Assembly (NCBI RefSeq): GCF_023156505.1
Contig: NZ_JALNMJ010000001.1
Span: forward strand, 558,001-622,000
Direction: 5' to 3'
From: Roseibium sediminicola
GTDB taxonomy: Bacteria; Pseudomonadota; Alphaproteobacteria; Rhizobiales; Stappiaceae
DNA: 64,000 nt
Numbering within the stretch: the stretch's first letter is position 1; every line of letters begins with the position of its first letter. The translations under genes were made by a program, and so were the position numbers. A model generated the notes under the pieces. It did no database searches. It was not told the origin of the DNA and worked only from the letters and a program-made list of their open reading frames with translations. Below are positions 47,842 through 63,415 of the stretch, in pieces.

Positions 47842-47857
47842 TATTCAGAAACAAGAT

Positions 47858-47871: not shown

Positions 47872-47905
47872 AAAAGGCAAGCAACAAGATATCTGGGAGG
47901 TCTGA

Positions 47906-48904
47906 ATGCGTTGGGCCCTGATCGGCGCGAGCCGGATTGCGTCGAGCTACATGATTGAGGCGATCCGCGCACAGGGCGGTGACATCCTGTCGGTGCTCAG
48001 TTCGGATGCCGCGCGTGGCGAAGGCTATGCCCGCGAGAACGGCATTGGCCGGAGCCTTACCGATCTGGACCAGCTGCTTGCGGATGACAGCGTCGACGCG
48101 GTCTATATCTCCACGACCAACGAGAAGCATCATGCCCAGGCTCTGGCGGCGATCGCGGCCGGCAAGCATATCCTGTGCGAAAAGCCGTTGGCGATGACGT
48201 TGGACGACGCCTGCGAAATGGTCCGGGCTGCAAAGGAAAAGGGTGTCGTCTTTGCCACCAATCACCATCTGCGCAATGCCGGCTCCCATCTCGCCATTCG
48301 CGACCTGATCCGCTCGGGCCGTATCGGCGAAGTGCTGAGCGCTCGTGTCTTCCACGCGGTGCATCTGCCCGAAGTGCTGCAGGGCTGGCGGATCAACGAC
48401 GCGGCCGCCGGCGGCGGGGTTATTCCCGACATCACGGTGCATGACGCGGACACGGTCCGTTTTCACCTGGGTGAAGACCCGCAGGAAGTTGTTGCGAAAG
48501 CGGGTGCCTCCGGGATGGGGCAGGGGGTCGAGGACAGCGTCATGTCCGTCTGGTCGATGCCCTCGGGCGCCATGGTCGAGAGCCATGAGAGCTTCACCCA
48601 TCCCTTTGCCGGCACCGGCATCGAATTCCACGGCACAAAGGGCTCGCTCTTCGCCCGCAACGTCATGACCCAGGAGCCGACCGGCGAGATCGTCCTGGTC
48701 GATGCGGATGGCGAGCACGCGATCCCGTTCGCAAAACACAATCTCTACGAATATGCGCTTGGTCTCTTCAAGGGTGCAGTCGCGGGCACCGGCGCCCCGT
48801 CGGCGGACGGTGTCGACGGCATCAAGTCGCTCGCGGTCGCCCTTGCCGTGCGCGAGGCCGCGCAGACCGGCCAGGCCGTCACCGTCAATTACGGAGGCTT
48901 TTGA
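47906..48904 (+). CDS. Gfo/Idh/MocA oxidoreductase, 1,5-anhydro-D-fructose reductase-like
   Basis: A 332-residue NAD(P)-dependent sugar oxidoreductase. The Rossmann start is WALIGASRIASSYMIEAIRA; the family motif EKP is in ILCEKPLAMTLDDA (about residue 95); the catalytic region has VIPDITVHDADTVRFHL (His and Asp, ~175-190). The whole pattern, including TNHHLRNAGSHLAIRD and ARVFHAVHLPEVLQGWR, closely recalls the 1,5-anhydro-D-fructose reductase of Sinorhizobium morelense as I remember it. It likely reduces a keto-sugar. GGGAGG lies 5 bases before the ATG. First gene of the LacI operon. Confidence 0.88.
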   Translation: MRWALIGASRIASSYMIEAIRAQGGDILSVLSSDAARGEGYARENGIGRSLTDLDQLLADDSVDAVYISTTNEKHHAQALAAIAAGKHILCEKPLAMTLDDACEMVRAAKEKGVVFATNHHLRNAGSHLAIRDLIRSGRIGEVLSARVFHAVHLPEVLQGWRINDAAAGGGVIPDITVHDADTVRFHLGEDPQEVVAKAGASGMGQGVEDSVMSVWSMPSGAMVESHESFTHPFAGTGIEFHGTKGSLFARNVMTQEPTGEIVLVDADGEHAIPFAKHNLYEYALGLFKGAVAGTGAPSADGVDGIKSLAVALAVREAAQTGQAVTVNYGGF

Positions 48905-48906
48905 AC

Positions 48907-50481
48907 ATGACCTCCAAGATCGTTTCCATGGAAGACGCCGCCGGACGCATCGCGGATGGCGCGGTTGTCACCGTTTCCTCTTCCTCCGGCCTCGGATGCC
49001 CGGACCGGATCCTGAAAGCCATCGGCGACAGGTTCGACCGGGAAGGGCATCCGAGAAACCTTACGACGCTGCACCCGATCGCGGCCGGCGACATGTACGG
49101 CATCAAGGGCATCGACCACATCGCCAAGGATGGACTGCTGTCGACGATCATCGCCGGGTCCTATCCCTCCGGACCGTCGTCGCTGCCCATGCCGGAGATC
49201 TGGCGCATGCTCGTCGACAATCGGGTCGCTGCTTATAACGTGCCGTCGGGCATCCTGTTCGACATGCATCGCGATGTCGCGGCGCGTCGTCCGGGCGTGA
49301 TGACCAAGGTCGGCCTCGACACGTTTGTCGATCCCGTTCGCCAGGGCTGCGCCATGAACGAGGCGGCCGAAGCCAAACCGATCGTCAACCGCCTGGAGCT
49401 TGCCGGCGAAACCTGGCTGCATTTCCCGAACATCGTGCCCGATGTTGCTATTGTCCGGGCGACGACGGCGGATGAAAGCGGCAACCTGACCTATGAACAC
49501 GAGGGCGCCTATCTCGGCGGTCTGGAACAGGCCATTGCGACCCGCAACCATGGCGGCCTGGTGATCGCGCAGGTCAAGCGGGTCACCGCCTGCGGGTCCC
49601 TGCGCCCTCATGACGTGCGTATTCCCGGCCACCTGGTCGATCTGATCGTGGTCGATCCCGACCAGCGCCAGACCACGGAAACGGATTACGATCCGGCCAT
49701 CTCCGGTGAAATCATGCGGCCCTGGTCCAGCTTCTCCCTGGCCGAGCACAGCGTGGAAAAGGTGGTCGCGCGCCGCGCCGCCATGGAGCTGCGCGCCGGC
49801 CAGACCGCCAATCTCGGCTTCGGTATTTCCGCGATCGTGCCGCGGGTGCTTCTGGAGGCCGGCCGCGAACAGGCGGTCACCTGGGCAATCGAGCAGGGTG
49901 CAACGGGCGGCATGCCGCTGACCGGCTTTGCCTTTGGCTGCGCTTCGAACGCGGACGCCTTCATGCCGTCGCCACAGCAATTCACCTATTTTCAGGGAGG
50001 TGGCTTCGACGTTTCCTTCCTGTCGTTTCTCGAGGTCGACCTGGACGGCAACGTCAATGTCTCCAAGCTCGGCAAGAAACCTTACCTGACAGCGGGTTGC
50101 GGCGGTTTTGTCGACATCACGGCCAATGCGCGCAAGATCGTCTTCTCTGGCCTGTTTGAGGCCGGCGCAGAGATCGAGCTGACACCGGACGCCCTCAAGG
50201 TGAAAACGCCGGGCAAGTTCACCAAGATGGTCGACGAGGTCGAACACGTCACCTTCTCCGGACGCCGGGCTCGCGAGCTCGGCCAGCAAGTGCTTTACGT
50301 CACCGAGCGCTGTGTCATCGAGCTGACTGGCGACGGCCTGACAGCGACCGAGATCATGCCGGGCATTGATCCGCAAAGGGACATTGTCGAAGCCTCCGGT
50401 GGGCGGGTGAAACTGGCAGGCAACCTGCAGATGATGCCGAAGGCTCTGCTCAATGAAGGCGCGATGGAGCTTGCCCTATGA
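48907..50481 (+). CDS. Acyl-CoA:acetate/3-oxoacid CoA-transferase-like protein
   Basis: A 524-residue family I CoA-transferase with both halves fused (YdiF/PCT-like). The N-half has VVTVSSSSGLGCPDRILKAI and TTLHPIAAGDMYGIKG; the C-half has AVTWAIEQGATGGMPLTGFA, where the Glu of EQGATGG is the expected CoA-thioester-forming residue (about 330). It moves CoA between short acids, activating a carboxylate. The ATG at 48907 follows the reductase stop by 2 bases. Such an enzyme is unexpected in a sugar-import operon. Confidence 0.88.
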   Translation: MTSKIVSMEDAAGRIADGAVVTVSSSSGLGCPDRILKAIGDRFDREGHPRNLTTLHPIAAGDMYGIKGIDHIAKDGLLSTIIAGSYPSGPSSLPMPEIWRMLVDNRVAAYNVPSGILFDMHRDVAARRPGVMTKVGLDTFVDPVRQGCAMNEAAEAKPIVNRLELAGETWLHFPNIVPDVAIVRATTADESGNLTYEHEGAYLGGLEQAIATRNHGGLVIAQVKRVTACGSLRPHDVRIPGHLVDLIVVDPDQRQTTETDYDPAISGEIMRPWSSFSLAEHSVEKVVARRAAMELRAGQTANLGFGISAIVPRVLLEAGREQAVTWAIEQGATGGMPLTGFAFGCASNADAFMPSPQQFTYFQGGGFDVSFLSFLEVDLDGNVNVSKLGKKPYLTAGCGGFVDITANARKIVFSGLFEAGAEIELTPDALKVKTPGKFTKMVDEVEHVTFSGRRARELGQQVLYVTERCVIELTGDGLTATEIMPGIDPQRDIVEASGGRVKLAGNLQMMPKALLNEGAMELAL

Positions 50482-51245
50482 GCGCGCTGCACCTGATCCG
50501 CCATGGCAGTGTCGCCGAGCTGCGCCTGGACAATCCGGCCAAGCTGAACGCCTTCACGCTGGAAATGCTGGAAGCCGTCGAACCGCATTGCGTGGAGATC
50601 GAGCGGGACGACAGCATCCGCGCAGTGGTTATCAGCGCGGAGGAGGGCCGCGCCTTCTGTGCCGGGGCCGACATTCTCGCCTGGTCCGAGCTGGAACCCT
50701 GGGACTTTGCCCGCCACTGGGTGCGCTATGGCCACCGGATCTTCGACCGCCTGGCGCGCCTTGCCAAACCCACAGTCGCGGCGATGAACGGCCATGCCTT
50801 TGGCGGCGGGCTGGAATTTGCGGGCACCGCCGACATGCGCGTCATGTCGCCGGCGGCAACGCTGGCCCTGCCGGAGGCCGCGGTCGGGATCGTACCCGGC
50901 TGGTCGGGTACCCAGCGGCTGATCCGCCTGCTTGGCGAGCCGCTGGTGAAGGAAATGGCGCTGTTCGGCCGAAGGATCTCGGCAGAGCGCGCCCACGCGG
51001 CCGGGTTCTGCGCGGAGATCGCCGAGGACCCGCGCTCAAGGGCCTTTGAAATCGCGGAAGCACAGGCGTCGCGCTCGCCCTGCGCCATCGAAGTGGCGAA
51101 ATACATGATCCACGCGGCTGTCGACGAAGACCGGGGCGCCATGATCGAGGCGCTGGGAGCCGGCATGATCGGGCCGACCGCCGATCGCGACGAGGGCGTC
51201 ACCGCCTTTCGCGAAAAACGCAAACCGACTTTTCCTGGAAAATGA
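50478..51245 (+). CDS. Enoyl-CoA hydratase/isomerase family protein
   Basis: A 255-residue crotonase. The oxyanion-hole segment is SAEEGRAFCAGADILAW (about residues 54-70). Both catalytic glutamates of hydratases appear: in NGHAFGGGLEFAGTADMRV (about 114) and ALPEAAVGIVPGWSGTQRL (about 134). So hydration of a double bond in a CoA thioester is plausible. Its gene overlaps those of the CoA-transferase and the aldehyde dehydrogenase by 4 bases each, showing tight coupling. Confidence 0.9.
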   Translation: MSALHLIRHGSVAELRLDNPAKLNAFTLEMLEAVEPHCVEIERDDSIRAVVISAEEGRAFCAGADILAWSELEPWDFARHWVRYGHRIFDRLARLAKPTVAAMNGHAFGGGLEFAGTADMRVMSPAATLALPEAAVGIVPGWSGTQRLIRLLGEPLVKEMALFGRRISAERAHAAGFCAEIAEDPRSRAFEIAEAQASRSPCAIEVAKYMIHAAVDEDRGAMIEALGAGMIGPTADRDEGVTAFREKRKPTFPGK

Positions 51246-52777
51246 CCATGAGTGACCTCAACGTTGTTTCGATCAGCGAAGCCAAAATCCCGAACGAGTC
51301 TTTCCTTGCCCGGCACCTGATCGACGGCAGCTGGCGGGAAAGCGCGGACGGGGCGACCTTCGAGCGCCTGTCGCCCTCCCATGCGAGCCTGGTGACCCGC
51401 GCGAGCAAGGGCGGCGTGCAGGATGTCGATGCGGCGATCTCCGCCGCGAGGCTGGCCTTCGACAAGGGGCGCTGGTCGTGGACCAGCGGCAAGGACCGGG
51501 CGACGCTTCTTTTGAAGGTTGCCGATCTGATCGACCGCGACCGGGAGCGGATCGCGCTCATGGAAACGCTGGAATCCGGCAAGCCGATCAGTCAGGCGCG
51601 GGCGGAAATCGAAGGCGCTGCCGACATCTGGCGCTTTGCCGCCTCGCTCGCCCGCACGCTTCACGGCGAGAGCTACAATTCCCTCGGCAACGACTTTCTC
51701 GGCCTGGTGCTGAAGGAACCGATCGGCGTCGTCTCCATCATCACGCCGTGGAACTTCCCGTTCCTGATCGTGTCCCAGAAACTGCCCTTCGCCCTGGCTG
51801 CCGGCTGCACCGCGGTGATCAAGCCCTCGGAAATGACACCGGCCACGACCGTCATTCTCGGCGAACTCCTGATCGAGGCCGGACTTCCCGCCGGCGTCGT
51901 CAACATCGTGCTCGGCTATGGCGACCCGGTGGGAACGGCGATGACGGCGGACAAGCGCGTCGACATGGTCACCTTCACCGGCTCGACCGGCGTCGGCAAG
52001 GCCATCGTCAAGGCAGCCGCAGGCACCCTGAAGAAGGTGTCGCTCGAACTTGGCGGGAAAAATCCCCAGGTTATCTTTCCGGACGCGGATCTTGAAAGTG
52101 CCGTCGATGCAGTCGTCTTCGGCGTCTATTTCAATGCCGGCGAATGCTGCAATTCCGGATCCAGAATTATCGTGCACGAGGACATAGCCGAGGCCTTCGT
52201 TGCGCGCATCGTGGAGGTGTCGCGCAAGGTTCCCTTCGGAGATCCGCTGGACCCATCGACCAAGGTCGGGGCGATCATCACCCCCGGCCACCAGCAGAAG
52301 ATCGACACCTATGTGCAGGAGGCCGCGAAGGCTGGGGCGGATGTGCGCCTCGGCGGCGCTGCTCTCGAAGTGCCGGGACTTGCCGGCCAGTTCTACCAGC
52401 CGACCGTGGTCGCCAATGTGAAAGGCCACATGCCGATCGCCCGCGAGGAAGTGTTCGGCCCGGTACTGTCGGTGCTGACTTTCAAGACGCTGGACGAGGC
52501 CATCGCGCTGGTCAACGACGCGGATTACGGCCTTTCCGCAGGCGTGTGGAGCGAGAACGTCCACACCTGCATGGAATTCGCGCGCCGCGCCCAGGCCGGC
52601 ACGGTCTGGACCAACACCTGGATGGACGGCTTTGCCGAACTGCCCTTTGGCGGCGTCAAGGAAAGCGGCCAGGGAAGGGAGCTGGGCAAATACGGATTGG
52701 AGGAGTTTCTCGAGGCGAAAACCGTGACGATGCGGATCGGCCGCACGCGCGCGCCTTGGGTCGACCCGGGGACCTGA
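51242..52777 (+). CDS. NAD(P)-dependent aldehyde dehydrogenase
   Basis: A 511-residue ALDH-superfamily enzyme. Family motifs: SIITPWNFPFLIVSQKLPFA (~165-185), FTGSTGVGKAIVKAAAGTLK (cofactor), the general-base Glu in VSLELGGKNPQVIFPDADLE (~265), and the catalytic Cys in YFNAGECCNSGSRIIVHED (~300). It has the normal length. It oxidises an aldehyde made in the pathway to an acid, which the neighbouring CoA-transferase could then activate. No substrate-specific feature is clear. Confidence 0.92.
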   Translation: MTMSDLNVVSISEAKIPNESFLARHLIDGSWRESADGATFERLSPSHASLVTRASKGGVQDVDAAISAARLAFDKGRWSWTSGKDRATLLLKVADLIDRDRERIALMETLESGKPISQARAEIEGAADIWRFAASLARTLHGESYNSLGNDFLGLVLKEPIGVVSIITPWNFPFLIVSQKLPFALAAGCTAVIKPSEMTPATTVILGELLIEAGLPAGVVNIVLGYGDPVGTAMTADKRVDMVTFTGSTGVGKAIVKAAAGTLKKVSLELGGKNPQVIFPDADLESAVDAVVFGVYFNAGECCNSGSRIIVHEDIAEAFVARIVEVSRKVPFGDPLDPSTKVGAIITPGHQQKIDTYVQEAAKAGADVRLGGAALEVPGLAGQFYQPTVVANVKGHMPIAREEVFGPVLSVLTFKTLDEAIALVNDADYGLSAGVWSENVHTCMEFARRAQAGTVWTNTWMDGFAELPFGGVKESGQGRELGKYGLEEFLEAKTVTMRIGRTRAPWVDPGT

Positions 52778-52822
52778 TCCCCGGACTGGAAGGATGAAGA
52801 TACGCAGTCAGGGAGGAAATCT

Positions 52823-54070
52823 ATGCGTAAGTTCACAACCATGATGACAGCGGCCGCCGCGCTTCTTGCGGCCGGCACAGCGACAAAGGCAGCGGATGTC
52901 GAGGTCCTGCACTGGTGGACCTCCGGCGGTGAGGCTGCGGCCCTCAACGTTCTGAAGGAAGACCTGGAAAGCCAGGGCATCGGCTGGCAGGACATGCCGG
53001 TCGCCGGTGGCGGCGGTACCCAGGCCATGACCGTGCTGCGCGCGCGCGTGACCTCCGGCAACCCGCCGACCGCCGTGCAGATGCTCGGCTTCGACATCAC
53101 CGACTGGGCCCAGGAAGGCGCGCTCGCCGACCTGAACATCCTGGCCGGCATGGAAGGCTGGGACGATGTCGTGCCCGAAGCCCTGCAGAAATTCTCCAAA
53201 TATGACGGCAAGTGGGTCGCAGCACCCGTGAACGTGCACTCCACAAACTGGGTCTGGGCCAACAAGGCCGTTCTAGACGAGCTCGGCATTGCGCCGCCGC
53301 AGACCTGGGACGAATTCGTCGCCGCGCTGGAAAAGGTCAAGGCCTCCGGCAAGACCGCCATCGCTCATGGCGGTCAGGCCTGGCAGGAAGCGACGGTGTT
53401 CGATGCGGTCGTCCTATCGACTGGCGGACCTGAGTTCTACAACAAGGTCTTTGTCGATCTCGACGAGGAAGCCCTCGGCTCTGATACGATGAAGCAGGCT
53501 TTCGACCGGATGGCCGTGATCCGCTCCTATGTGGATGACAACTTCTCCGGTCGCGACTGGAACCTGTCCTCTGCGATGGTCATCAACGGCGACGCCGCTT
53601 TCCAGATGATGGGCGACTGGGCGAAGGGTGAATTCCTCAATGCCGGCAAGCAGCCCGATACGGATTTCCTCTGCTTCCGCTTCCCGGGTACAGAAGGAAA
53701 GGTGACCTTCCTTTCCGACCAGTTTGCACTTTTTGCTCAAGGACCCGAAGTCGGTAAGGAACAGGCTGCACTTGCGGCCGCGATAATGTCGCCAAACTTT
53801 CAGTCAGCGTTCAACGTGGTGAAAGGCTCGGTTCCTGCGCGAACCGATGTTTCGGACGAAGCTTTCGATGCCTGCGGCAAAAAGGGTATAGCCGATCTGA
53901 AGGCTGCTGCAGCAAGTGGAAATTTGGTGGGCTCCATGGCGCATGGCCATGCCAACCCGGCAGCCATCAAGAATGCGATGTATGACGTCATCACCGCCCA
54001 CTTCAACGGTGAATACGACAGCGAGACCGCCGTCGAGGAACTCGTCAACGCGGTTCAGATCAACAAATAA
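52823..54070 (+). CDS. Sugar ABC transporter substrate-binding protein
   Basis: A 415-residue family 1 binding protein with signal peptide [20 protein letters not shown] cleaved near TKAAD. The mature protein starts [20 protein letters not shown], a hallmark of the glucose/mannose (GtsA-like) binding proteins, with [20 protein letters not shown] and [19 protein letters not shown] also in keeping. It is preceded by GGGAGGAAATCT. The ligand is a mono- or small oligosaccharide or sugar derivative. Confidence 0.91.
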
Positions 54071-54129
54071 GCGTGCCAATGAGAGCGGTGATCCGTCACC
54101 GCTCTCTCCAAAACGGCCGGGGACTGACA

Positions 54130-55035
54130 ATGTCTATTTCTGAAACAGCGAACCCGCGCGGTTCCGTTGCTGACAGACTGCGTGACGCGTTGCCCAAACT
54201 GGTGTTGAGCCCGACCGTCGCCATCGTGGCGATCTTCGTCTATGGCTTCATCCTGTTCACGCTCTATCTCTCCTTCACCGACAGCCGGATCCTGCCGACC
54301 TTCGGGCTTGTGGGCTTCGAGAACTACGACAAGCTGTTCCGGCTGCGCGCCTGGGACACCGCCGTTTCCAACCTGGTGATCTTCGGTGTTCTCTACATCG
54401 CGATCTGCTGCGTGCTGGGGCTGTTGCTGGCGATCCTGCTCGACCAGCGCATTCGCGCGGAAGGCTTCATCCGGACCATCTATCTCTACCCGATGGCGCT
54501 CAGCTTCATCGTAACCGGCGTGGCCTGGAAATGGTTCCTGGATCCCGGCATCGGCATCGAGGCGGTCGTCCAGGGCTGGGGCTGGACCGATTTCAAGTTC
54601 AACTGGATCAAGGATCGCGAAATGGCGATCTACACCATTGTCATCGCGGCGGTCTGGCAGACTTCCGGCTTTGTCATGGCGATGTTCCTGGCAGGCCTGC
54701 GCGGCATCGACAGCGAGATGATGAAGGCGGCCCAGATCGACGGCGCCTCGACCTTCGCGCTCTACCGCCGGATTATCATTCCGCAGCTGCGCCCGGCCTT
54801 CATGTCCGCCTTCGTGGTGCTGGCACACATGGCGATCAAGTCCTATGACCTGGTCATCGCGCTGACAGGCGGCGGGCCGGGGACATCGACCGAATTGCCT
54901 GCAACCTTCATGTATTCCTACACCTTCACCCGGAACCAGATGGGCATCGGCGCGGCTTCCGCCGTGATCATGCTGATGACGATCGCCGCGATCATCGTGC
55001 CCTATCTCTGGTCGGAACTGCGGGAGAAAAAGTGA
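54130..55035 (+). CDS. Sugar ABC transporter permease (MalF-like)
   Basis: A 301-residue permease with six helices. The EAA loop is EMMKAAQIDGASTFALYRRI (~200-220), and TGGGPGTSTELPATFMYSYT is typical of carbohydrate-type permeases. The ATG at 54130 (MSISETANPRG) is chosen; the frame is open to 54073, but the first 19 codons look like leader sequence. It pairs with the next permease. Confidence 0.91.
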   Translation: MSISETANPRGSVADRLRDALPKLVLSPTVAIVAIFVYGFILFTLYLSFTDSRILPTFGLVGFENYDKLFRLRAWDTAVSNLVIFGVLYIAICCVLGLLLAILLDQRIRAEGFIRTIYLYPMALSFIVTGVAWKWFLDPGIGIEAVVQGWGWTDFKFNWIKDREMAIYTIVIAAVWQTSGFVMAMFLAGLRGIDSEMMKAAQIDGASTFALYRRIIIPQLRPAFMSAFVVLAHMAIKSYDLVIALTGGGPGTSTELPATFMYSYTFTRNQMGIGAASAVIMLMTIAAIIVPYLWSELREKK

Positions 55036-55907: not shown

Positions 55908-55911
55908 GACC

Positions 55912-57021
55912 ATGGGCTTCCTGGATATCAAAAAAGCCACAAAATCATACGGCTCCCTGCAAGTCCTGCACGAGACGGACATCTCCGTTGAGGAAGGCGA
56001 GTTTCTGGTGCTGGTTGGCCCATCCGGCTGCGGCAAGTCCACGCTGCTCAACATGATTGCGGGACTGGAGGACATCACCTCTGGCGAGATCGCGATCCGT
56101 GGCCGCAGCATGAACGGCGTCAAGCCGGCGGACCGGAACATCGCCATGGTGTTCCAGTCCTACGCGCTCTACCCGAACATGACCGTTGCCGGAAACATCT
56201 CCTTCGGCATGGAAATGCACGGCATCCCGAAACCGGAACGGCAGAAACGCATTGACCAGGTCGCAGACCTTCTGCAGATCAGCCATCTGCTCGACCGCAA
56301 GCCGGGACAACTGTCGGGCGGCCAGCGCCAGCGTGTTGCCATGGGCCGCGCCCTGGTGCGCGAACCCGACGTGTTCCTGTTCGACGAGCCGCTCTCCAAC
56401 CTCGACGCCAAGCTGCGTGTCGACATGCGCACCGAAATCAAGAAGCTGCACCAGAAGCTCGGCACCACCATCGTCTACGTGACCCACGACCAGATCGAGG
56501 CGCTGACGCTGTCGACACGGATCGCGGTGATGTATGGCGGTTATGTCCAGCAGCTCGGCACGCCCAAGGAGATCTACGACAACCCGGCCAACATGTTCGT
56601 CGCAGGCTTCATGGGTTCGCCCTCGATGAACCTCTTCCCGGCCAAGGTTGTCTCGCTCGACGGACGTCCGGCGGCCGAAATCGCGCTCGCGGACGGCAAG
56701 TCCGCTGCAGTGCCCTTTGCCGGTGAGACCCTTGCCTCCAGTGTCGGCCGTGACATCGTCCTCGGCATTCGCCCGGAAGCGATCACCGACAAGGACGGCG
56801 CCGATCGCAACTCCAACGCGGTCCACATGGTGGAGGCTCCGGTGGAAGTGACCGAACCCGCGGGCTCGGATACGTTTGTGGTCAGCCAGATCGGCGGCAA
56901 GGATGTCACCGGCCGGTTCCGCGCAGACGTCAATGTGCGGGCAGGGGACGTCTTCCCCTTTGCCTTCAACATGGAAAAGGCGGTTGCCTTCGATCCGCAG
57001 ACAGAAAACAGGATTGCCTGA
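55912..57021 (+). CDS. Sugar ABC transporter ATP-binding protein (MalK/UgpC-like)
   Basis: A 369-residue ATPase. Walker A LVGPSGCGKSTLLNMI, Q-loop AMVFQSYALYPNMTVAGNI, signature LSGGQRQRVAMGRALV, Walker B VFLFDEPLSNLDAKLR, H-loop IVYVTHDQIEALTLSTR. Residues ~240-365 form the C-terminal TOBE/OB regulatory domain of sugar-type ATPases. It is the single ATPase that drives this importer as a homodimer. It lies 4 bases after the permease. Confidence 0.93.
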   Translation: MGFLDIKKATKSYGSLQVLHETDISVEEGEFLVLVGPSGCGKSTLLNMIAGLEDITSGEIAIRGRSMNGVKPADRNIAMVFQSYALYPNMTVAGNISFGMEMHGIPKPERQKRIDQVADLLQISHLLDRKPGQLSGGQRQRVAMGRALVREPDVFLFDEPLSNLDAKLRVDMRTEIKKLHQKLGTTIVYVTHDQIEALTLSTRIAVMYGGYVQQLGTPKEIYDNPANMFVAGFMGSPSMNLFPAKVVSLDGRPAAEIALADGKSAAVPFAGETLASSVGRDIVLGIRPEAITDKDGADRNSNAVHMVEAPVEVTEPAGSDTFVVSQIGGKDVTGRFRADVNVRAGDVFPFAFNMEKAVAFDPQTENRIA

Positions 57022-57024
57022 CCC

Positions 57025-58509
57025 GTGACCAACGCCCCGGACATCGTGATCATCGGCAGCGGCATGGGCGGCGCGACACTCGCCGCCGGCCTTGCGCCGT
57101 CCGGTGCGCGTATTGTCATCCTGGAGCGGGGCAACCGTATCCCGGACGACGCACCGGCGCGCGATCCCTGGCGCATCTACACCAACAGCGCCTTCCGCTC
57201 CAACGAGACCTGGCTTGATGCCGATGGCGAGGCGTTCGAGCCGGGCAACTACTACAATGTCGGCGGCAACTCGAAGCTCTACGGCGCGGTCCTGATCCGC
57301 TACCGGAAAGAGGATTTCGCCGCCCTTGAGCATTATGACGGCGTTTCGCCCGCCTGGCCCTTTGCCTATGAGGAGCTGTCGCCCTGGTACGATGCGGCAG
57401 AGCAGCTGTTCCAGGTCCGCGGCGATGCCCATTCCGATGCCACCGAGCCGCCCCATGGCAAACCCTATCCGTTCCCGCCCGTGCCGGACGAAGAGGCGAT
57501 CCGTCACGCCAGGCGGCGCCTGGAACAGGCCGGCGTCGTGCCTTTCAGCCTGCCGCTCGGGGTCGATATCGACCGCTGGCTCGACGCGGGGCAGACCGGC
57601 TGGGACGGCTATCCGGATCTGCGCTGCGGCAAGATGGACGCCGAGACCTGTCCCCTGGCGGCAGCGCTTTCCCACGACAATGTCAGCCTCGTCACCGGGG
57701 CCGAGGTGAGGGAGCTGCGCACCGGCTACAAGACCGACCGGATCGAGGAAGTCGTCTATGAGAAGGACGGCGAGGACATCTGCCTGACGCCGGGAGTGGT
57801 GGCGCTGTGCGCCGGGGCTGTCCAGTCCGCCGCGCTGCTGTTGCGCTCGGGCATTGCAAACAGCTCCGACTATGTCGGCCGCTGCTTCATGAACCACAAT
57901 GCAACGGCGATGATCGCCATCGACCCACGCTTCCGCAACACCTCCGTCTACCAGAAGACCTTCGGCATCAACGAGTGGTACCTGGACGACGGTGAGGACG
58001 GCAGGCCGCTCGGCAATGTTCAGCTTCTGGGGCGGGTCACCCCGGACATCCTGAAGATCCAGGTACCGCAACTGCCGAAAATCGCCGCGCGCTGGATTTC
58101 CGGTCACGCGCTCGATCTTTATCTCATTTCCGAGGACCTGCCAGATCCCGAGAGCCGGGTGGTCCTGAACGAGGGCAAGGTGCAGCTGATCTGGCGCCGG
58201 TCCAACATGACCGCCCATGACAAGCTGGTCTCAAAAATGCGGCAGACATTGCGCCGGGCCGGCTTTCCGCTGGTGATGACCCGTCTCTTCGACGGCCAGG
58301 TCCCCTCCCACCAATGCGGCACCGTGAGACTGGGCGACGATCCCGCAACGTCGGTGCTCAGGCCCGACTGCCGGACCTGGGACCATCCGAACCTTTATGT
58401 CGCCGACGCAGGCGCACTGCCAACCTCGGCGGCGGTGAACCCGGCCCTGACGGTTGCGGCGCTTGCGCTCCGGACGGCGGAAACGATTCAAAAGGATCTG
58501 GCGGCATGA
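57025..58509 (+). CDS. GMC-family FAD oxidoreductase, copy 1
   Basis: A 494-residue flavoprotein. The FAD motif is IVIIGSGMGGATLAAGLAPS at the N-terminus; NYYNVGGNSKLYGAVLIRYR is the second FAD-contact loop; the C-terminal domain has VPSHQCGTVRLGDD (active-site His, ~430) and AGALPTSAAVNPALTVAALA (paired Asn). Relatives oxidise sugar or polyol hydroxyls, feeding electrons to the respiratory chain or oxygen. GTG start 3 bases after the ATPase stop. It is distant from the second GMC protein at 59289, so it probably acts on another intermediate. Confidence 0.87.
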   Translation: MTNAPDIVIIGSGMGGATLAAGLAPSGARIVILERGNRIPDDAPARDPWRIYTNSAFRSNETWLDADGEAFEPGNYYNVGGNSKLYGAVLIRYRKEDFAALEHYDGVSPAWPFAYEELSPWYDAAEQLFQVRGDAHSDATEPPHGKPYPFPPVPDEEAIRHARRRLEQAGVVPFSLPLGVDIDRWLDAGQTGWDGYPDLRCGKMDAETCPLAAALSHDNVSLVTGAEVRELRTGYKTDRIEEVVYEKDGEDICLTPGVVALCAGAVQSAALLLRSGIANSSDYVGRCFMNHNATAMIAIDPRFRNTSVYQKTFGINEWYLDDGEDGRPLGNVQLLGRVTPDILKIQVPQLPKIAARWISGHALDLYLISEDLPDPESRVVLNEGKVQLIWRRSNMTAHDKLVSKMRQTLRRAGFPLVMTRLFDGQVPSHQCGTVRLGDDPATSVLRPDCRTWDHPNLYVADAGALPTSAAVNPALTVAALALRTAETIQKDLAA

Positions 58510-59264
58510 GCAAGCTGGCACTGGTCACCGGCGGACAGCGCGGCATCGGTCTCGGCATTTCCGAGGCGCTTGTTGCGGCGGGATACAGGGTTGCGATCCT
58601 GGCCCAGCTTTCGGCCGGCGATCCGGAAGTCACCGAGGCACTCGCCCGTCTCGGCCCTGATGCAGCCTATTTCCAGCACGATCTCCAGGAGATCGATGGT
58701 CATGCGGCCGTGCTCGACCGGATCGAACAGGAACTTGGGCCCGTTTTCACGCTGGTCTCCAATGCAGGCGTTCCGGCAAAGATCCGCGGCGATCTCCTGG
58801 ATCTGCAGCCGGACAATTTCGACTTCGTCATGGGCGTCAACCTGCGCGGGGCGTTTTTCCTGGCCCAGGAGGTTGCCCGGCGGATGCTCACACGCGATGC
58901 CGGCAGCTACCGCTCCCTGATCTTCATCACCTCGGTCAGCGCAAGCATGGTCTCGGTTGAGCGCGCCGAATACTGCCTGTCGAAGGCGGGCGCCGCGATG
59001 ATGGCCGAGCTCTTTGCCGTGCGCCTGGCGCCGCACGGCATCGGCGTCTTCGAAATTCGCCCGGGCATCATCGAGACGCCGATGACGGCAGGGGTAAAGG
59101 ACAAATACACCGCGCAGATCGAACAGGGGCTGGTGCCGGCGGCGCGCTGGGGCCAGCCGGCAGACATCGCCGCAGCCGTGGTGCCGCTTGCAGAAGGCCA
59201 GATGGCGTTTGCGACCGGTACGACCATCAAGGTGGATGGCGGGCTGTCGATCCCGCGTCTTTGA
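58506..59264 (+). CDS. Short-chain dehydrogenase/reductase (SDR)
   Basis: A 252-residue classical SDR. The cofactor motif is ALVTGGQRGIGLGISEALVA; LVSNAGVP is the NNAG-like motif; the catalytic Ser lies in FITSVSAS and the YxxxK pair in AEYCLSKAGAA (about residues 155-159). RPGIIETPMTAG follows. So it should be an active NAD(P)-dependent hydroxyl/keto oxidoreductase. The ATG at 58506 overlaps the GMC stop by 4 bases; the longer frame from 58314 lies inside the GMC gene. Confidence 0.92.
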   Translation: MSKLALVTGGQRGIGLGISEALVAAGYRVAILAQLSAGDPEVTEALARLGPDAAYFQHDLQEIDGHAAVLDRIEQELGPVFTLVSNAGVPAKIRGDLLDLQPDNFDFVMGVNLRGAFFLAQEVARRMLTRDAGSYRSLIFITSVSASMVSVERAEYCLSKAGAAMMAELFAVRLAPHGIGVFEIRPGIIETPMTAGVKDKYTAQIEQGLVPAARWGQPADIAAAVVPLAEGQMAFATGTTIKVDGGLSIPRL

Positions 59265-59288
59265 GAAACAGCACTCTTTGGGTTGAAC

Positions 59289-60875
59289 ATGGAAAAAGGC
59301 TACGATTTCATCATCATCGGCGGCGGCAGCGCCGGCTCCGTCGTCGCGGCCCGGCTGACGGAAAATCCCGATATCAAGGTGCTGCTGCTGGAGGCGGGCG
59401 GACGCGACTGGCATCCGTTCTATCACCTGCCGGCAGGCTTCGCGAAAATGACCAAGGGCATCGGTTCCTGGGGCTGGCACACGGTGCCGCAAAAGCACAT
59501 GAACGACCGGGTCTTCCGCTACACCCAGGCCAAAGTGATCGGCGGCGGCTCCGCCATCAACGCCCAGATCTACACCCGCGGCAACGCGCTCGATTATGAC
59601 GAATGGCGCCAGCTGGGCTGCGAGGGGTGGGGCTATGAGGACGTGCTGCCCTATTACCGCAAGGCCGAGGACAACGACACCTACGACAACCGCTATCACG
59701 GTAAGGGCGGGCCGCTCGGCGTTTCAAAACCCTGCGCGCCGCTCCCCATATGCGAGGCCTATTTCGAGGCCGCGGCCGCCCTCGGCATTCCGAAGAACGA
59801 GGATGTCACCGGCGAGAAACAGGATGGCGTCGCCTATTACCAGCTGACCCAGCGCAACGCCCGCCGGTCCTCCGCGGCCATGGCCTATCTGGCCCCCAAC
59901 AAGAACCGGCCGAACCTCGAGGTCCGCACGGGCGCCAATGTGCGTCGGATCGTGGTGGAAGCGGGCAAGGCCACCGGGGTCGAACTGGTCGATGGCACCA
60001 GGTTGACCGCGGACGCGGAAGTGATCCTCTCCTCCGGCTCGATCGGCTCGCCGAGGCTGCTGCAGCTCTCCGGGATCGGCCCGGCCGACAATCTGCATGG
60101 CCTTGGCATCGATGTGGTGCTCGACCAGCCGAATGTCGGCGCCAACCTGCAGGATCATCTTGATCTCTACTGCATTTGCGAGGTCAGCGGACCGCACACC
60201 TATGACCGGTTCGCCAAGCCGCACCTGTCTGTGATGGCCGGCCTGCAATATCTCCTGACCCGGCGCGGCCCGGTCTCCTCAAGCCTGTTCGAGACCGGCG
60301 GTTTCTGGTACGCGGATCCGGAAGCGCGCTCACCCGATCTTCAGTTTCACCTGGGCCTCGGCACCGGTATTGAATCGGGCGTGGCCGCCATGCCCGATGG
60401 CGGCGTCACCCTGAATTCCTGCTACCTGCGGCCGCGCTCCAGAGGCACAGTACGCCTGCGCAGCGCCGATCCGTCGGCCGAACCGTTGATCGATCCGAAT
60501 TACCTGGAAGATCCGCGTGACCGGGAAATGTCGATCCGCGGCCTGAAGCTGACCCAGGAGATCCTGGCTCAGGCACCCTTGAAACCCTTCATCAAGGCCG
60601 AGCGGCTGCCTGGACCGGATCTCAAGACGGACGATGAGTATTTCCGGTTCATCTGTGAGCATTCCAAGACCTCGCATCACCCGGCGGGCACTTGCCGCAT
60701 GGGCGTCGATGACGGCGCTGTTGTGACGCCGCGCCTGAAATTCAATGGCATTGAAAACTTGCGCGTCGTCGACGCCTCCATCATGCCGAACGTCATTTCC
60801 TCCAACACCAATGCCGCGGCCATCATGATCGGCGAAAAAGCCTCCGACATGATCCGTGAAGACCTGAAAGCCTGA
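59289..60875 (+). CDS. GMC-family FAD oxidoreductase (choline dehydrogenase-like), copy 2
   Basis: A 528-residue flavoprotein of the alcohol/choline dehydrogenase branch. FAD motif FIIIGGGSAGSVVAARL, GMC signature 1 region YTQAKVIGGGSAINAQIY, signature 2 GSIGSPRLLQLSGIG, the catalytic His in SKTSHHPAGTCRMGVDD (~465) and Asn in MPNVISSNTNAAAIMIGEKA. It oxidises a primary or secondary alcohol. The ATG at 59289 is preferred over TTG 59283. A true choline role is unlikely without other bet genes nearby. Confidence 0.91.
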   Translation: MEKGYDFIIIGGGSAGSVVAARLTENPDIKVLLLEAGGRDWHPFYHLPAGFAKMTKGIGSWGWHTVPQKHMNDRVFRYTQAKVIGGGSAINAQIYTRGNALDYDEWRQLGCEGWGYEDVLPYYRKAEDNDTYDNRYHGKGGPLGVSKPCAPLPICEAYFEAAAALGIPKNEDVTGEKQDGVAYYQLTQRNARRSSAAMAYLAPNKNRPNLEVRTGANVRRIVVEAGKATGVELVDGTRLTADAEVILSSGSIGSPRLLQLSGIGPADNLHGLGIDVVLDQPNVGANLQDHLDLYCICEVSGPHTYDRFAKPHLSVMAGLQYLLTRRGPVSSSLFETGGFWYADPEARSPDLQFHLGLGTGIESGVAAMPDGGVTLNSCYLRPRSRGTVRLRSADPSAEPLIDPNYLEDPRDREMSIRGLKLTQEILAQAPLKPFIKAERLPGPDLKTDDEYFRFICEHSKTSHHPAGTCRMGVDDGAVVTPRLKFNGIENLRVVDASIMPNVISSNTNAAAIMIGEKASDMIREDLKA

Positions 60876-60877
60876 CC

Positions 60878-61192
60878 ATGATCCGTCACATCGTCCTCAT
60901 CAAGTTCAAGCCAGACGTCTCGGAAGAGACGATCTCGGACCTCTTCGCCGAGCTGCGCGAGATCGAAAAGCAGGTCTCCGGCATCCGCGGCATCACTTCC
61001 GGGCGCAGCGAAAGTCCTGAAAAGATCGAACGGGGTTATATGCACGGTTTTGTCGTCGATTTCGACGACTGGGACGCTTTGGAACGCTACCAAACCCACC
61101 CGGACCACAAGGCCCTTGGTGGCAAGCTCGTCGCCAACGCAATCGGCGGGATCGACGGCATCCTGGTGCTGGACATTCCGGTCGCGGCCTGA
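60878..61192 (+). CDS. Dabb (stress-responsive A/B barrel) domain protein
   Basis: A 104-residue protein with the Dabb fold. IRHIVLIKFKPDVSEETISD opens the ferredoxin-like barrel, and YMHGFVVDFDDWDALERYQT followed by HPDHKALG is the family mark. Dabb proteins form dimers and some act as small lyases or cyclases in catabolic operons, while others have unknown roles. It starts 2 bases after the GMC stop. Its place inside the operon suggests a catalytic step rather than a stress role. Confidence 0.85.
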   Translation: MIRHIVLIKFKPDVSEETISDLFAELREIEKQVSGIRGITSGRSESPEKIERGYMHGFVVDFDDWDALERYQTHPDHKALGGKLVANAIGGIDGILVLDIPVAA

Positions 61193-61222
61193 CCTGGCCC
61201 ACCGCCCATTCTGGAGTTTCCG

Positions 61223-62386
61223 ATGCTGACCCTTCCGACCTATGCCAATAAACTGGAACCCTACCGGCTGACCGGGGAGCCGCTGGTGCCACGCGCGCCC
61301 GAAGTGCCGCTCACCCGCACCGCCTTTGCCGCCGCCCACGTCGTCTCCGATCCGCTCGCCGAGCGCGATCCCTGGGTCGGGTCTCCTGCGGTCGACTGGG
61401 AGAACACGCTCCGGTTCCGCAACTGGCTGTTCGATCAGGGCCTTGGCCTTGCCGAAGCCATGGACACGGCACAGCGCGGCATGGGGGTCGACTGGCCGAC
61501 GGCGAAGGAACTCATCGAACGCACGATGCGGGAAGCAAAGGCCCATCCGCTGAAACCCCGCGTTGCCTGCGGCGCCGGCACCGATCAGAAGCTGCTGTCC
61601 GAGCTGAAGAATCGTGACGATATCCTGGCTGCTTATGCCGAACAGATGGAGGCGGTTGAGGCGGCCGGCGGGCAGGTGATCCTGATGGCCTCGCGCGCGT
61701 TTCCGGCAATCGGCGCCACAGCGGACGATTACGCCTTTGTCTATGGCAGGCTGCTGGATCAGGCGGCGGCGCCGGTCGTGCTGCACTGGCTCGGCGACAT
61801 GTTCGATCCGGCGCTTGCCGGCTACTGGGGTGCCGCCGATTTCGAAACCGCGTCCTCGGCGGTTCTGGATATCATCAAGGCGCACGCGAAAAAGGTCGAC
61901 GGCATCAAGATCTCGCTGCTCAACCAGGCCTATGAAGAACGGTTCCGGGCGAGACTTCCTGAAGGGGTCCGGCTCTATACCGGCGACGATTTCAACTATG
62001 CCGACCTGATCGCCGGCGACGGAACACATTATTCCCATGCGCTTCTGGGAGCCTTCGCAGCGATCGCGCCTGCCGCGAGCCAGGCGTTGGAAGCGCTGGC
62101 CAAGGACGACATGGAGACCTACCACACGCTGTTCGCGCCGACCGTGCCGCTCAGCCGCGAGATCTTCAAGGCGCCGACCCAGTTTTACAAGGCCGGCATT
62201 GCCTTCCTTGCCTGGCTGAACGGCGCGCAGAGCCACTTCATCATGCCGGCAGGTTTCCAGTCCGCCCGGGAGATCACTCATTATGCGGAAGTGTTTCGGC
62301 TTGCGGATCAGGCCCGGGTGTTGTCAAAGCCGGAGGTGGCGGTTGACCGGATGAAGCTGCTATTGAAGCTCCACGGCGTGGAATAG
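61223..62386 (+). CDS. DUF993 / dihydrodipicolinate synthase-like TIM-barrel protein
   Basis: A 387-residue protein that fits the DUF993 family, a branch of the class I aldolase/DHDPS superfamily. Family segments include LTRTAFAAAHVVSDPLAERD, PRVACGAGTDQKL and QVILMASRAFPAIGATADDY. The Lys in KKVDGIKISLLNQAYE (about residue 232) is at the place expected for Schiff-base formation on a barrel strand, and YTGDDFNYADLIAGDG follows. A retro-aldol cleavage of an oxidised sugar acid is plausible but unproven. It starts 30 bases after the Dabb gene. Confidence 0.84.
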   Translation: MLTLPTYANKLEPYRLTGEPLVPRAPEVPLTRTAFAAAHVVSDPLAERDPWVGSPAVDWENTLRFRNWLFDQGLGLAEAMDTAQRGMGVDWPTAKELIERTMREAKAHPLKPRVACGAGTDQKLLSELKNRDDILAAYAEQMEAVEAAGGQVILMASRAFPAIGATADDYAFVYGRLLDQAAAPVVLHWLGDMFDPALAGYWGAADFETASSAVLDIIKAHAKKVDGIKISLLNQAYEERFRARLPEGVRLYTGDDFNYADLIAGDGTHYSHALLGAFAAIAPAASQALEALAKDDMETYHTLFAPTVPLSREIFKAPTQFYKAGIAFLAWLNGAQSHFIMPAGFQSAREITHYAEVFRLADQARVLSKPEVAVDRMKLLLKLHGVE

Positions 62387-62395
62387 GGACAGGGA

Positions 62396-63415
62396 ATGGG
62401 CAAGCGGGCGACCATACTGGATGTGGCCAAAAAGGCGGGGGTCTCGAAATCCACCGTCTCCCTTGTCCTGCAGAATTCCTCGCTGGTGAAGCAGCAGACC
62501 CGGGACCAGGTCACCGCGGCCATGGAAACGCTCGGCTATGTCTATAACCGCTCGGCCGCCGGCCTGCGCGGCGCGGCGTCCGGCCTGATCGGCCTGATCA
62601 TCAACGATCTGCGCAACCCATTCTTCACCGAATTCGCCGCCAGTGCCCAGATGTGTTTTGCCCGTCAGGGCTATTCCACCGTCATTGCCAACACCGACGA
62701 AAAACCGGACATCCAGGCGCAGGTGATCGACAGCATGATCGAACATGGTGTCTCGGCCTTTGTCATATCGCCGACCTATGGCGGCGAGGACCGGCCGTTC
62801 GACCGTATCGAGCGCGCGGGCATTCCGACCATGCAGGTGCTGCGTCAGGTGGACGAGCGTACGGACCTGTTTCCCTTCGCCTCCCATGACTACACGGCCG
62901 GCGGCCGGCTGGCGGGAGAACACCTGATCGCGCAAGGATGCAGAAAAATCGCGTTTGTCGGCGGCATCGAGGACCGTCCGATCACGCTGGAACGCATGTC
63001 CGGTTATCACGAAGCAATGACGGCGGGCGGTCTTGCACCCCAAGCCTTTTACGGTCGCCCCTCGCGAGCCTTCGGCCGCGACATCGCCCTGCATCTTGCA
63101 AAGGAGCACCGGGACATCGAGGCGGCAATCTGTTTCAGCGACCTGGTCGCTCTTGGCATGCTCAGCGGCTTTGCCGAGGCCGGTATCCGGGCCGGCCGGG
63201 ATTTCAGGATCGTCGGCTTCGACGACATCGAGGAAAGTTCCATCGCCTATCCAAGGCTCAGTTCCGTTCGCTGTGATTCCGCCCTGTTCGGCCAAAACGC
63301 CGCCGAGGCGATGCTCGCCTGGATCACGGCAGGCAAGCGCCCGCCGGACCAGAAGCGCTACGACGTCGATTTGGTGACGCGACAGTCCAGTCTTTGGGAG
63401 GAACGGGACGTCTGA
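62396..63415 (+). CDS. LacI-family transcriptional repressor
   Basis: A 339-residue regulator. The N-terminal helix-turn-helix is ATILDVAKKAGVSKSTVSLV (about residues 4-23) with the hinge helix NRSAAGLRGAAS near residue 55. The rest is a periplasmic-binding-like sugar domain (LIGLIINDLRNPFFTEFAAS, IVGFDDIEESSIAYPRLSSV). It starts 9 bases after the DUF993 stop and closes the operon. It is the natural candidate to bind the two TTGGAACGTTCCAA operators in front of the first gene and to respond to the imported sugar or an intermediate. Confidence 0.93.
   Translation: MGKRATILDVAKKAGVSKSTVSLVLQNSSLVKQQTRDQVTAAMETLGYVYNRSAAGLRGAASGLIGLIINDLRNPFFTEFAASAQMCFARQGYSTVIANTDEKPDIQAQVIDSMIEHGVSAFVISPTYGGEDRPFDRIERAGIPTMQVLRQVDERTDLFPFASHDYTAGGRLAGEHLIAQGCRKIAFVGGIEDRPITLERMSGYHEAMTAGGLAPQAFYGRPSRAFGRDIALHLAKEHRDIEAAICFSDLVALGMLSGFAEAGIRAGRDFRIVGFDDIEESSIAYPRLSSVRCDSALFGQNAAEAMLAWITAGKRPPDQKRYDVDLVTRQSSLWEERDV

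What the first reader, a model, noticed from the sequence alone, without database searches (positions are those of the whole stretch)
47906..63415. LacI-controlled 14-gene operon joining sugar import, flavin oxidation and CoA-thioester chemistry
The genes are co-directional and mostly touching: AFR-like reductase, CoA-transferase, enoyl-CoA hydratase, ALDH, a four-gene sugar importer, GMC, SDR, GMC, Dabb, DUF993, LacI. Sugar operons rarely hold a CoA-transferase plus a crotonase. A route can be imagined in which a sugar or anhydro-sugar is oxidised by the GMC/SDR enzymes, cleaved by the DUF993 aldolase-like protein, and its acid fragment activated by CoA transfer and hydrated. I know of no described pathway with this gene set.
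Basis: partly seen in the sequence, partly recalled or inferred. Interest (0 to 1): 0.9.

Follow-up and report, generated by a model that had tools for sequence, protein, structure and literature searches.

The report
Anhydrofructose-reductase operon with CoA enzymes
Fourteen adjacent genes, kept together in dozens of marine and soil bacteria, begin with a close relative of a known enzyme for the starch-derived sugar 1,5-anhydrofructose and likely form an apparently undescribed pathway that would take such sugars apart through CoA-bound acids to glycerate.

Summary
Seven core enzymes stand in the same order in 40 of 40 loci fetched from other genomes. A LacI-type palindrome, TTTGGAACGTTCCAAA, lies twice in front of gene 1; its degenerate pattern matches nowhere else in the 6.35-Mb genome. 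Relatives carry it at the same promoter, some also before GMC1, LacI or DUF993.

Gene 1 is an orthologue of crystallised 1,5-anhydro-D-fructose reductase (402 bits; next family 87). The S. meliloti operon copy encodes that crystallised enzyme, 331 of 332 residues. The recorded step after it is a still unidentified C1 hydroxylase giving mannose (review passage); no oxygenase is in the operon. A glycerate kinase follows in 25 of 40 of those loci, but in only 3 of 20 Roseibium loci.

Best reading: an aerobic route for 1,5-anhydro sugars. The sugar acid would be activated by CoA transfer, dehydrated by the crotonase, cleaved by DUF993 (DHDPS-type aldolase fold) and drained through D-glycerate. Substrate class likely (about 0.7); exact order uncertain (about 0.35). 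A 3-hydroxypropionate branch is the main rival.

The parts
47819..47847 (+). promoter-like TTGACA - 17 nt - TATTCA in front of the operon
   Evidence: read by eye from the sequence printed; not reported by the consensus scan
47827..47842 (.). LacI-type operator O1, TTTGGAACGTTCCAAT, in the promoter spacer
   Evidence: the core is conserved upstream of AFR in 55 of 59 other loci
47857..47872 (.). LacI-type operator O2, perfect palindrome TTTGGAACGTTCCAAA, 30 bp from O1
   Evidence: O1 and O2 are the only matches to the degenerate pattern in the 6.35-Mb genome
47906..48904 (+). 1,5-anhydro-D-fructose reductase orthologue (Gfo/Idh/MocA), 332 aa
   Evidence: 402 bits to 4koa, 401 to 2glx, next 87; 195/331 identical to the S. 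meliloti enzyme; EKPLA and VHDADT present
48907..50481 (+). family I CoA-transferase of the YdiF type
   Evidence: PF01144; best solved relative YdiF 2ahu, 328 bits
50478..51245 (+). short-chain enoyl-CoA hydratase (crotonase)
   Evidence: PF00378; best solved relative 3-hydroxypropionyl-CoA dehydratase 5zai, 169 bits, next 134; GGGLE and LPE kept in the alignment
51242..52777 (+). aldehyde dehydrogenase, betaine-aldehyde-dehydrogenase-like
   Evidence: PF00171; NCBIfam best row TIGR01804, 486 bits, below its cut-off of 669
52823..54070 (+). sugar ABC transporter, substrate-binding protein
   Evidence: PF01547
54130..55035 (+). sugar ABC transporter, permease 1
   Evidence: PF00528
55032..55907 (+). 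sugar ABC transporter, permease 2
   Evidence: PF00528
55912..57021 (+). sugar ABC transporter, MalK-type ATPase
   Evidence: PF00005 + PF17912
57025..58509 (+). GMC1, flavin dehydrogenase related to FAD glucose dehydrogenase / fructose dehydrogenase
   Evidence: PF05199/PF00732; best solved relatives 8hdd/6a2u about 117 bits, fructose dehydrogenase 82
58506..59264 (+). short-chain dehydrogenase
   Evidence: PF13561; PRK12745 above its cut-off, 335 vs 250 bits
59289..60875 (+). GMC2, choline-dehydrogenase-like flavoprotein
   Evidence: PF00732/PF05199; best solved relative choline dehydrogenase 9lq0, 370 bits
60878..61192 (+). Dabb-domain protein
   Evidence: PF07876; best solved relative 3bb5, weaker similarity to olivetolic acid cyclase
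61223..62386 (+). DUF993 protein, class I aldolase fold
62396..63415 (+). LacI-family regulator of the operon
   Evidence: PF00356 + PF13377; palindromic sites
63417..63434 (+). terminator-like hairpin directly after LacI
   Evidence: 9 such hits in the region, 12.6 expected by chance

Best explanation
This is likely the dedicated operon for aerobic use of 1,5-anhydro sugars (1,5-anhydrofructose, and possibly 1,5-anhydroglucitol), predicted to be switched by its own LacI repressor and predicted to run from an anhydrofructose reductase through CoA-bound intermediates to D-glycerate. Proposed order: (1) the ABC importer takes up the sugar (inferred). (2) GMC1 would oxidise 1,5-anhydroglucitol to 1,5-anhydrofructose (inferred). 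(3) AFR reduces 1,5-anhydrofructose to 1,5-anhydromannitol; this is reported for its characterised relatives (review passage) and predicted here from orthology. (4) GMC2 plus ALDH would turn the C6 alcohol into an acid, as choline dehydrogenase and betaine aldehyde dehydrogenase do for choline (inferred). (5) The CoA-transferase would make the C6 thioester, in which the C4 hydroxyl is a beta-hydroxyl (inferred). (6) The crotonase would eliminate it, giving a ring enol ether that opens, perhaps with Dabb, to a 2-keto-3-deoxy sugar acid (inferred). (7) DUF993 would cleave this by retro-aldol to pyruvate and glyceraldehyde (inferred). (8) ALDH and a glycerate 2-kinase (next to the operon in many relatives, elsewhere in this genome) would give 2-phosphoglycerate (inferred). 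The manno configuration set by AFR at C2 would become D-glyceraldehyde; the gluco form would give L. This would explain why a C2 reductase opens the pathway. The role of the SDR is unassigned. Confidence about 0.7 for the substrate class and glycerate exit, about 0.35 for this exact order.
For: AFR orthology with a 315-bit gap to the next family, and the S. meliloti operon copy that encodes the crystallised enzyme 4koa at 331/332 residues. AFR, CoA-transferase, ECH, GMC1, SDR, GMC2 and DUF993 in the same order in 40 of 40 fetched loci; transporter genes 38, LacI 38, ALDH 37, Dabb 36, glycerate kinase 25 of 40. The transporter is absent from two of the 40 while all enzymes stay (L173, L199). 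LacI operator pattern only here in the whole genome, its core in front of AFR in 55 of 59 loci, also directly before GMC1 in 12 loci, before LacI in the two rearranged operons (S. meliloti, Microvirga) and before the divergent DUF993 of Microvirga. Glycerate kinase also stands near DUF993 in operons without AFR. DUF993 has the DHDPS/NAL aldolase fold, with a lysine (K229) invariant in 29 sequences on strand 6 of the model. A gene annotated enolase, or a relative of it, accompanies DUF993 in 6 of 20 AFR-less loci (19 and L147). The substrate-binding gene SMc04396 is cited as dextrin-induced (passage of PMC4960864).
Against: The published S. morelense route, as summarised in a review passage, goes from 1,5-anhydromannitol to mannose by C1 hydroxylation; nothing in this operon does that. 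The crotonase is closest to 3-hydroxypropionyl-CoA dehydratase and the CoA-transferase to YdiF; both suggest a small acyl group, not a sugar acid. DUF993 keeps the lysine but not the Tyr133 or the TTGE motif of DapA; the alignment behind this is weak (probability 2.5%, E 0.019). SDR or Gfo dehydrogenases are regular DUF993 partners, which step 7 as written does not explain. AFR can occur alone: G179 has it at 55% identity with no module. 10 of 142 class genomes have DUF993 but no AFR. In the window's own genus the glycerate kinase is beside the operon in only 3 of 20 loci (four of the 20 are cut by contig ends). In this genome it is not within 18.6 kb downstream; the single copy lies on another contig and no operator match lies near it.
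Confidence: 0.5

Rival explanations
1. Same substrate, different chemistry: GMC1 or SDR oxidises C3 of 1,5-anhydromannitol, beta-elimination of the ring oxygen from C5 opens the ring to a 5-deoxy-3,4-diketone, and cleavage between C3 and C4 gives D-glycerate plus 3-hydroxypropanal. ALDH makes 3-hydroxypropionate, CoA-transferase and crotonase make acryloyl-CoA, and a housekeeping reductase gives propionyl-CoA.
For: Crotonase is closest among solved structures to 3-hydroxypropionyl-CoA dehydratase by 35 bits; the CoA-transferase is of the short-chain YdiF type; one YhdH/AcuI-type reductase above cut-off is in the genome. It uses the SDR, balances C3 + C3, and also explains why AFR sets the manno form.
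Against: No enzyme in the set is known to me to cleave an alpha-diketone; DUF993's fold suggests retro-aldol chemistry. GMC2 is left without a task. Of the 24 recurring non-operon ORF families, I scanned 19 with Pfam; none matched an acryloyl-CoA reductase or propionate gene (several had no match).
Confidence: 0.25
2. The published route holds: 1,5-anhydromannitol is hydroxylated at C1 to mannose by an oxygenase encoded elsewhere. The flavin enzymes oxidise mannose, DUF993 splits 2-keto-3-deoxygluconate, and the CoA enzymes serve a side reaction.
For: Review passage on Kuhn et al. 2006.
Against: No oxygenase and no aldonate dehydratase among the Pfam matches of the 14 genes, nor among the 19 of 24 recurring neighbour families scanned. 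CoA-transferase and crotonase are present in 40 of 40 loci, which is constant for a side reaction.
Confidence: 0.1
3. The operon serves another keto-sugar or osone, and AFR only acts on 1,5-anhydrofructose by resemblance; the CoA branch degrades a deoxy-acid fragment after DUF993 has cut the sugar.
For: DUF993 with SDR and CoA-transferase occurs without a listed AFR-type gene in Caballeronia, Sagittula, Janthinobacterium, S. meliloti pSymA and one of 10 class-sample loci, with a crotonase in all but pSymA, where none is listed. So the CoA core is wider than anhydro-sugars. AFR is recalled to reduce osones too.
Against: AFR-type operons form one tight, co-regulated lineage, and isolation on 1,5-anhydrofructose led to the AFR discovery (review passage).
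Confidence: 0.15

Closest known systems
1,5-anhydro-D-fructose reductase of Sinorhizobium (2glx, 4koa)
   Same: Orthologous first gene; the crystallised S. meliloti enzyme is encoded in the same operon.
   Different: Only this reductase is characterised as far as I saw. Papers seen as passages list single operon genes of S. meliloti; none found or 108 describes the set.
Anaerobic glycyl-radical route for 1,5-anhydroglucitol 6-phosphate in gut bacteria (review passage)
   Same: Same class of substrate.
   Different: That route is phosphorylated and anaerobic; this operon has no PTS and no glycyl-radical enzyme, but has flavin dehydrogenases and CoA enzymes.
Non-phosphorylative Entner-Doudoroff pathway (recalled)
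   Same: Class I aldolase fold, ALDH and DUF4147/MOFRL glycerate kinase together would form the same lower half.
   Different: No aldonate dehydratase in the operon; dehydration would run on a CoA thioester; DUF993 is a separate Pfam family.
3-hydroxypropionate/acrylate conversion by CoA-transferase and crotonase in DMSP users (recalled)
   Same: Pair of a CoA-transferase and a crotonase.
   Different: Here embedded in a sugar operon with a LacI regulator.
DUF993 triads Gfo-DUF993-sugar isomerase
   Same: Same DUF993 family beside a dehydrogenase; some have an enolase-type gene or a glycerate kinase.
   Different: No AFR orthologue and no CoA-transferase seen beside them; DUF993 51-58% identical to the window's.

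Membership tests
1,5-anhydro-D-fructose reductase | orthology to 2glx/4koa well above other Gfo/Idh/MocA enzymes | tested here: met
   402 and 401 bits against 87 for the next; 195/331 identities to the S. meliloti enzyme
1,5-anhydro-D-fructose reductase | catalytic Lys in EKP and His in the VHDADT motif (roles recalled) | tested here: met
   EKPLA at 92-96, VHDADT at 178-183; aligned with 4koa
1,5-anhydro-D-fructose reductase | NADPH-dependent reduction of 1,5-anhydrofructose to 1,5-anhydromannitol | not testable with these tools
   needs the purified enzyme
class I aldolase (DHDPS/NAL) superfamily | TIM-barrel fold of the family | tested here: met
class I aldolase (DHDPS/NAL) superfamily | Schiff-base lysine on strand 6 | tested here: inconclusive
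   K229 invariant in 29 sequences, on model strand 225-231, opposite DapA K161 in a weak alignment
class I aldolase (DHDPS/NAL) superfamily | pyruvate-binding TTGE-type motif and catalytic Tyr of DapA | tested here: inconclusive
   opposite MDTA and His188 in the weak alignment; a pyruvate aldolase is not claimed as shown
enoyl-CoA hydratase (crotonase) | the two catalytic glutamates of hydratases (positions recalled) | tested here: met
   GGGLE and LPE aligned with 5zai and 5z7r (positions)
3-hydroxypropionyl-CoA dehydratase | activity on 3-hydroxypropionyl-CoA | not testable with these tools
   only best similarity, 169 vs 134 bits
family I CoA-transferase | PF01144 and a glutamate in a GG-type motif at about residue 331 | tested here: met
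   PF01144 80.8 bits; EQGATGG at 331-337; the catalytic role of this Glu is recalled, not tested
LacI-regulated operon | LacI-type palindrome with central CG at the operon promoter, conserved in relatives | tested here: met
   binding itself is untested
non-phosphorylative Entner-Doudoroff pathway | aldonate dehydratase feeding a 2-keto-3-deoxy acid aldolase | tested here: not met
   no such dehydratase among the 14 genes; only the lower half is alike

The most novel reading that the evidence does not exclude
First aerobic pathway for 1,5-anhydro-hexitols: a sugar ring is attacked as in fatty-acid beta-oxidation, by loading its acid form on CoA and dehydrating it with a crotonase, and is then cut by DUF993, a new aldolase class. 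It would replace the postulated, never identified C1 hydroxylase.
Probability: 0.35. Interest if true: 0.85.

Novelty: new variant of a known kind. Interest (0 to 1): 0.7.

Why it matters
A 2025 review states that the enzyme after AFR is still unidentified and that no analogous oxidative route for 1,5-anhydroglucitol has been described, and says a probiotic against a form of neutropenia would need an aerobic enzyme (passages of PMC12441222). This operon supplies a compact, co-regulated candidate gene set for that gap. It would give DUF993 (no paper in the held library contains the name) its first function, and would show CoA-thioester chemistry used on a sugar.

Tried and rejected
Considered and set aside: (a) deoxyribose-type oxidative route with a keto-acid cleavage enzyme: no DUF849-type gene among the 14, and AFR does not fit. 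(b) Levoglucosan or 3-keto-glycoside route: NCBIfam levoglucosan dehydrogenase scores 91 against a cut-off of 650, disaccharide and glycoside 3-dehydrogenases 68 and 38 against 650 and 750, and no sugar isomerase in the operon. (c) Feruloyl-type hydratase-lyase for the crotonase: both hydratase glutamates are kept (contrast recalled). (d) Retro-aldol directly on 1,5-anhydrofructose or on 3- or 4-keto-anhydromannitol: drawn by reasoning, gives no glycerate.

Led nowhere: paper searches for DUF993, for the gene set and for anhydrofructose with enoyl-CoA (no paper); pAO1 sugar-operon literature (nothing relevant in the listing). One search found nothing, probably because its term had a space for the comma that the tool does not accept. 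Kuhn et al. 2006 is not held, so it is known here only through a review passage and recall. NCBIfam: of the 10 proteins scanned, only the SDR passed a cut-off among the rows shown (at most 25 per protein). The consensus promoter scan found no promoter.

Results against: AFR without the module in G179; DUF993 without AFR in 10 of 142 class genomes; two upstream regions of 59 with only degenerate operators (L178, L181) and two (L145, L146) where the operator stands before LacI instead; 7 core matches in the loci not near any mapped gene. Operon-type DUF993 (78% identity or more) is in 21 of 37 genomes of the window's genus, own genome counted: the operon is patchy. Only 21 of the 40 loci have all 14 genes in the window's order; 8 of 40 lack at least one of the 14, and in the others Dabb or a second SBP-like match stands elsewhere. 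One genome is in twice (L131 and L180, same DNA), so 59 loci are 58 distinct ones. Neighbour families: 9 of 24 scanned and 10; the five left are two minus-strand ORF families lying where the glycerate kinase lies and three short ones.


Full report
OBSERVATION. The 14 ORFs are present as described, on one strand, with spacings of -4 to 59 bases. Pfam assigns Gfo/Idh/MocA, CoA-transferase, crotonase, ALDH, binding protein, two permeases, MalK-type ATPase, GMC, SDR, GMC, Dabb, DUF993 and LacI. The unit is bounded by a promoter-like sequence (TTGACA 47819-47824, TATTCA 47842-47847, read by eye) and a hairpin after LacI (63417-63434; such hairpins are frequent by chance).

CONSERVATION. DUF993 was used to draw 80 loci from the species-genome collection (105 stretches qualified, the best 80 were kept), then to search 61 genomes of relatives, own included. 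Roseibium is inferred as the window's genus from these relatives. Of 20 extended loci from that genus (L112-L131), 15 have all 14 genes in order, one (L131) lacks Dabb, and four are cut by a contig end; in eight of them an extra reverse LacI-like ORF stands between ALDH and SBP. AFR was then sought in the genomes of 50 of the 80 loci: 49 were held, and all 49 have it, the best copy at 62-78% identity. I fetched 40 of those 49 as regions of about 20 kb (two of the 40, L179 and L180, are Roseibium). AFR, CoA-transferase, crotonase, GMC1, SDR, GMC2 and DUF993 stand in the same order in 40 of 40; all 14 genes in the window's order in 21 of 40; 8 of 40 lack at least one gene. Binding protein, both permeases, ATPase and LacI are in 38; ALDH in 37; Dabb in 36; glycerate kinase in 25. 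The loci were chosen through DUF993 and then AFR, so these two counts say nothing; the others are informative. The set also stands in records of Peteryoungia, S. meliloti and Microvirga; in the latter two DUF993 is on the opposite strand, and no Dabb gene was listed in the S. meliloti stretch.

REGULATION. A scan of the 300 bases before AFR showed one palindrome, TTTGGAACGTTCCAAA or close to it, in nearly all loci. In the window it stands at 47827-47842 and 47857-47872. The degenerate pattern matches only these two places in the whole genome, with none for the reversed control. Its 12-base core with at most one mismatch lies within 150 bases of AFR in 55 of 59 other loci, twice or more in 42 (one genome is in twice). 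The four exceptions are L178 and L181 (degenerate sites) and L145 and L146. Elsewhere in the same loci the core was found 22 times in 1.19 Mb: 12 lie 25-57 bases before GMC1, two before LacI (S. meliloti, Microvirga), one 98 bases before the divergent DUF993 of Microvirga, and seven near no mapped gene. So the site tends to follow the genes when they move. This makes LacI control and pathway membership of DUF993 firmer than gene order alone. Binding is untested.

IDENTITY OF THE ENTRY ENZYME. The first gene scores 402 and 401 bits against crystallised 1,5-anhydro-D-fructose reductases 4koa and 2glx, the next solved relative 87. The reductase encoded in the S. meliloti Ak57 operon matches 4koa at 331 of 332 residues, counted by eye on the alignment. 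Counting back from leuB (SMc04405; leuB is near the operon), the S. meliloti genes would be SMc04389 to SMc04402. The names fit: SMc04390-04392 are listed as L-sorbose dehydrogenase, SDR and dehydrogenase (PMC12542648, passages), SMc04396 as a putative sugar transporter gene induced by dextrin (PMC4960864, passage), SMc04401 as a regulator (PMC4560400, passages). The numbering is my inference. That SMc04400 was named in the AFR discovery paper is recalled, not read.

STATE OF KNOWLEDGE. A 2025 review (PMC12441222, passages read) says that Rhizobiaceae reduce 1,5-anhydrofructose to 1,5-anhydromannitol, that an unidentified P450-like enzyme then hydroxylates C1 to give mannose, that gut bacteria use an anaerobic glycyl-radical route, and that an analogous oxidative route for 1,5-anhydroglucitol has not been described. 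The held library has no paper with DUF993, none with five of six pathway gene names, and none joining anhydrofructose and enoyl-CoA. Absence there is not absence from print.

MECHANISM. I commit to the CoA-assisted dehydration order given under best explanation, at about 0.35. Its appeal is that every step but those of SDR and GMC1 has a natural enzyme, that a CoA-transferase could recycle CoA between product and substrate acids, and that the manno configuration made by AFR would end as D-glyceraldehyde and D-glycerate, the form recalled as the kinase substrate. The main rival, a 3-hydroxypropionate branch, is favoured by the closest crotonase relative. Isotope labelling would separate them.

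WIDER DUF993. In an even sample of 142 class genomes DUF993 (E up to 1e-60) is in 11 and AFR (E up to 1e-80) in 2, own genome included in both. Of the 10 other DUF993 loci, seven are Gfo-DUF993-sugar isomerase, one has the isomerase without Gfo, one is a CoA-transferase/crotonase/SDR/isomerase/GMC2/glycerate kinase cluster, and one shows none of the partners searched for. The only other AFR genome, G179, has it without any of them. AFR by itself is therefore not diagnostic; the operon is.

VERDICT. A real, conserved operon with its own conserved operator, whose entry enzyme is known and whose remaining pathway appears undescribed. It turns an open question, the aerobic fate of 1,5-anhydro sugars, into a set of named genes.

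Noticed in passing
L140, L141, L142 (other Roseibium genomes): Paralogous clusters with DUF993, CoA-transferase, ALDH, GMC, SDR and Dabb at 31-59% identity, plus acyl-CoA dehydrogenase or MaoC, aldo-keto reductases and (L140, L141) a sugar isomerase: a second CoA-linked sugar-type pathway.
   Followed up: partly
L148 1158-19501 (directly downstream; its first ORF starts in the window at 63657): A second cluster with LacI-like, MalK-like, permease-like and SDR matches and, by eye from the translations, several NTF2-like proteins, a histidinol-dehydrogenase-like and a cupin-like protein.
   Followed up: no
L113, L118, L121, L124, L125, L126, L128, L129 between ALDH and SBP: An extra LacI-like ORF on the opposite strand (25-27% identical to the operon's LacI) splits the operon in 8 of 20 Roseibium loci; absent from the window.
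   Followed up: partly
beside LacI in Roseibium loci (e.g. L007 12160-12813): A HAD-family phosphatase gene is beside the operon in 15 of 20 Roseibium loci but has no match within 18.6 kb downstream of the window's copy.
   Followed up: partly
L208 (plasmid pAO1 of Paenarthrobacter nicotinovorans): ABC transporter, GMC, ALDH, Gfo, DUF993 and glycerate kinase side by side: DUF993 with glycerate kinase also in Actinomycetota.
   Followed up: no
L226, L232, L136, L139, L206, L147: An enolase-type gene stands near Gfo-DUF993-isomerase triads, which would fit a 2-keto-3-deoxy acid as DUF993 substrate.
   Followed up: partly
L215 13148-14158: A solitary AFR gene (55% identity) without the operon; neighbours look malic-enzyme-like and carboxylase-like by eye.
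   Followed up: partly
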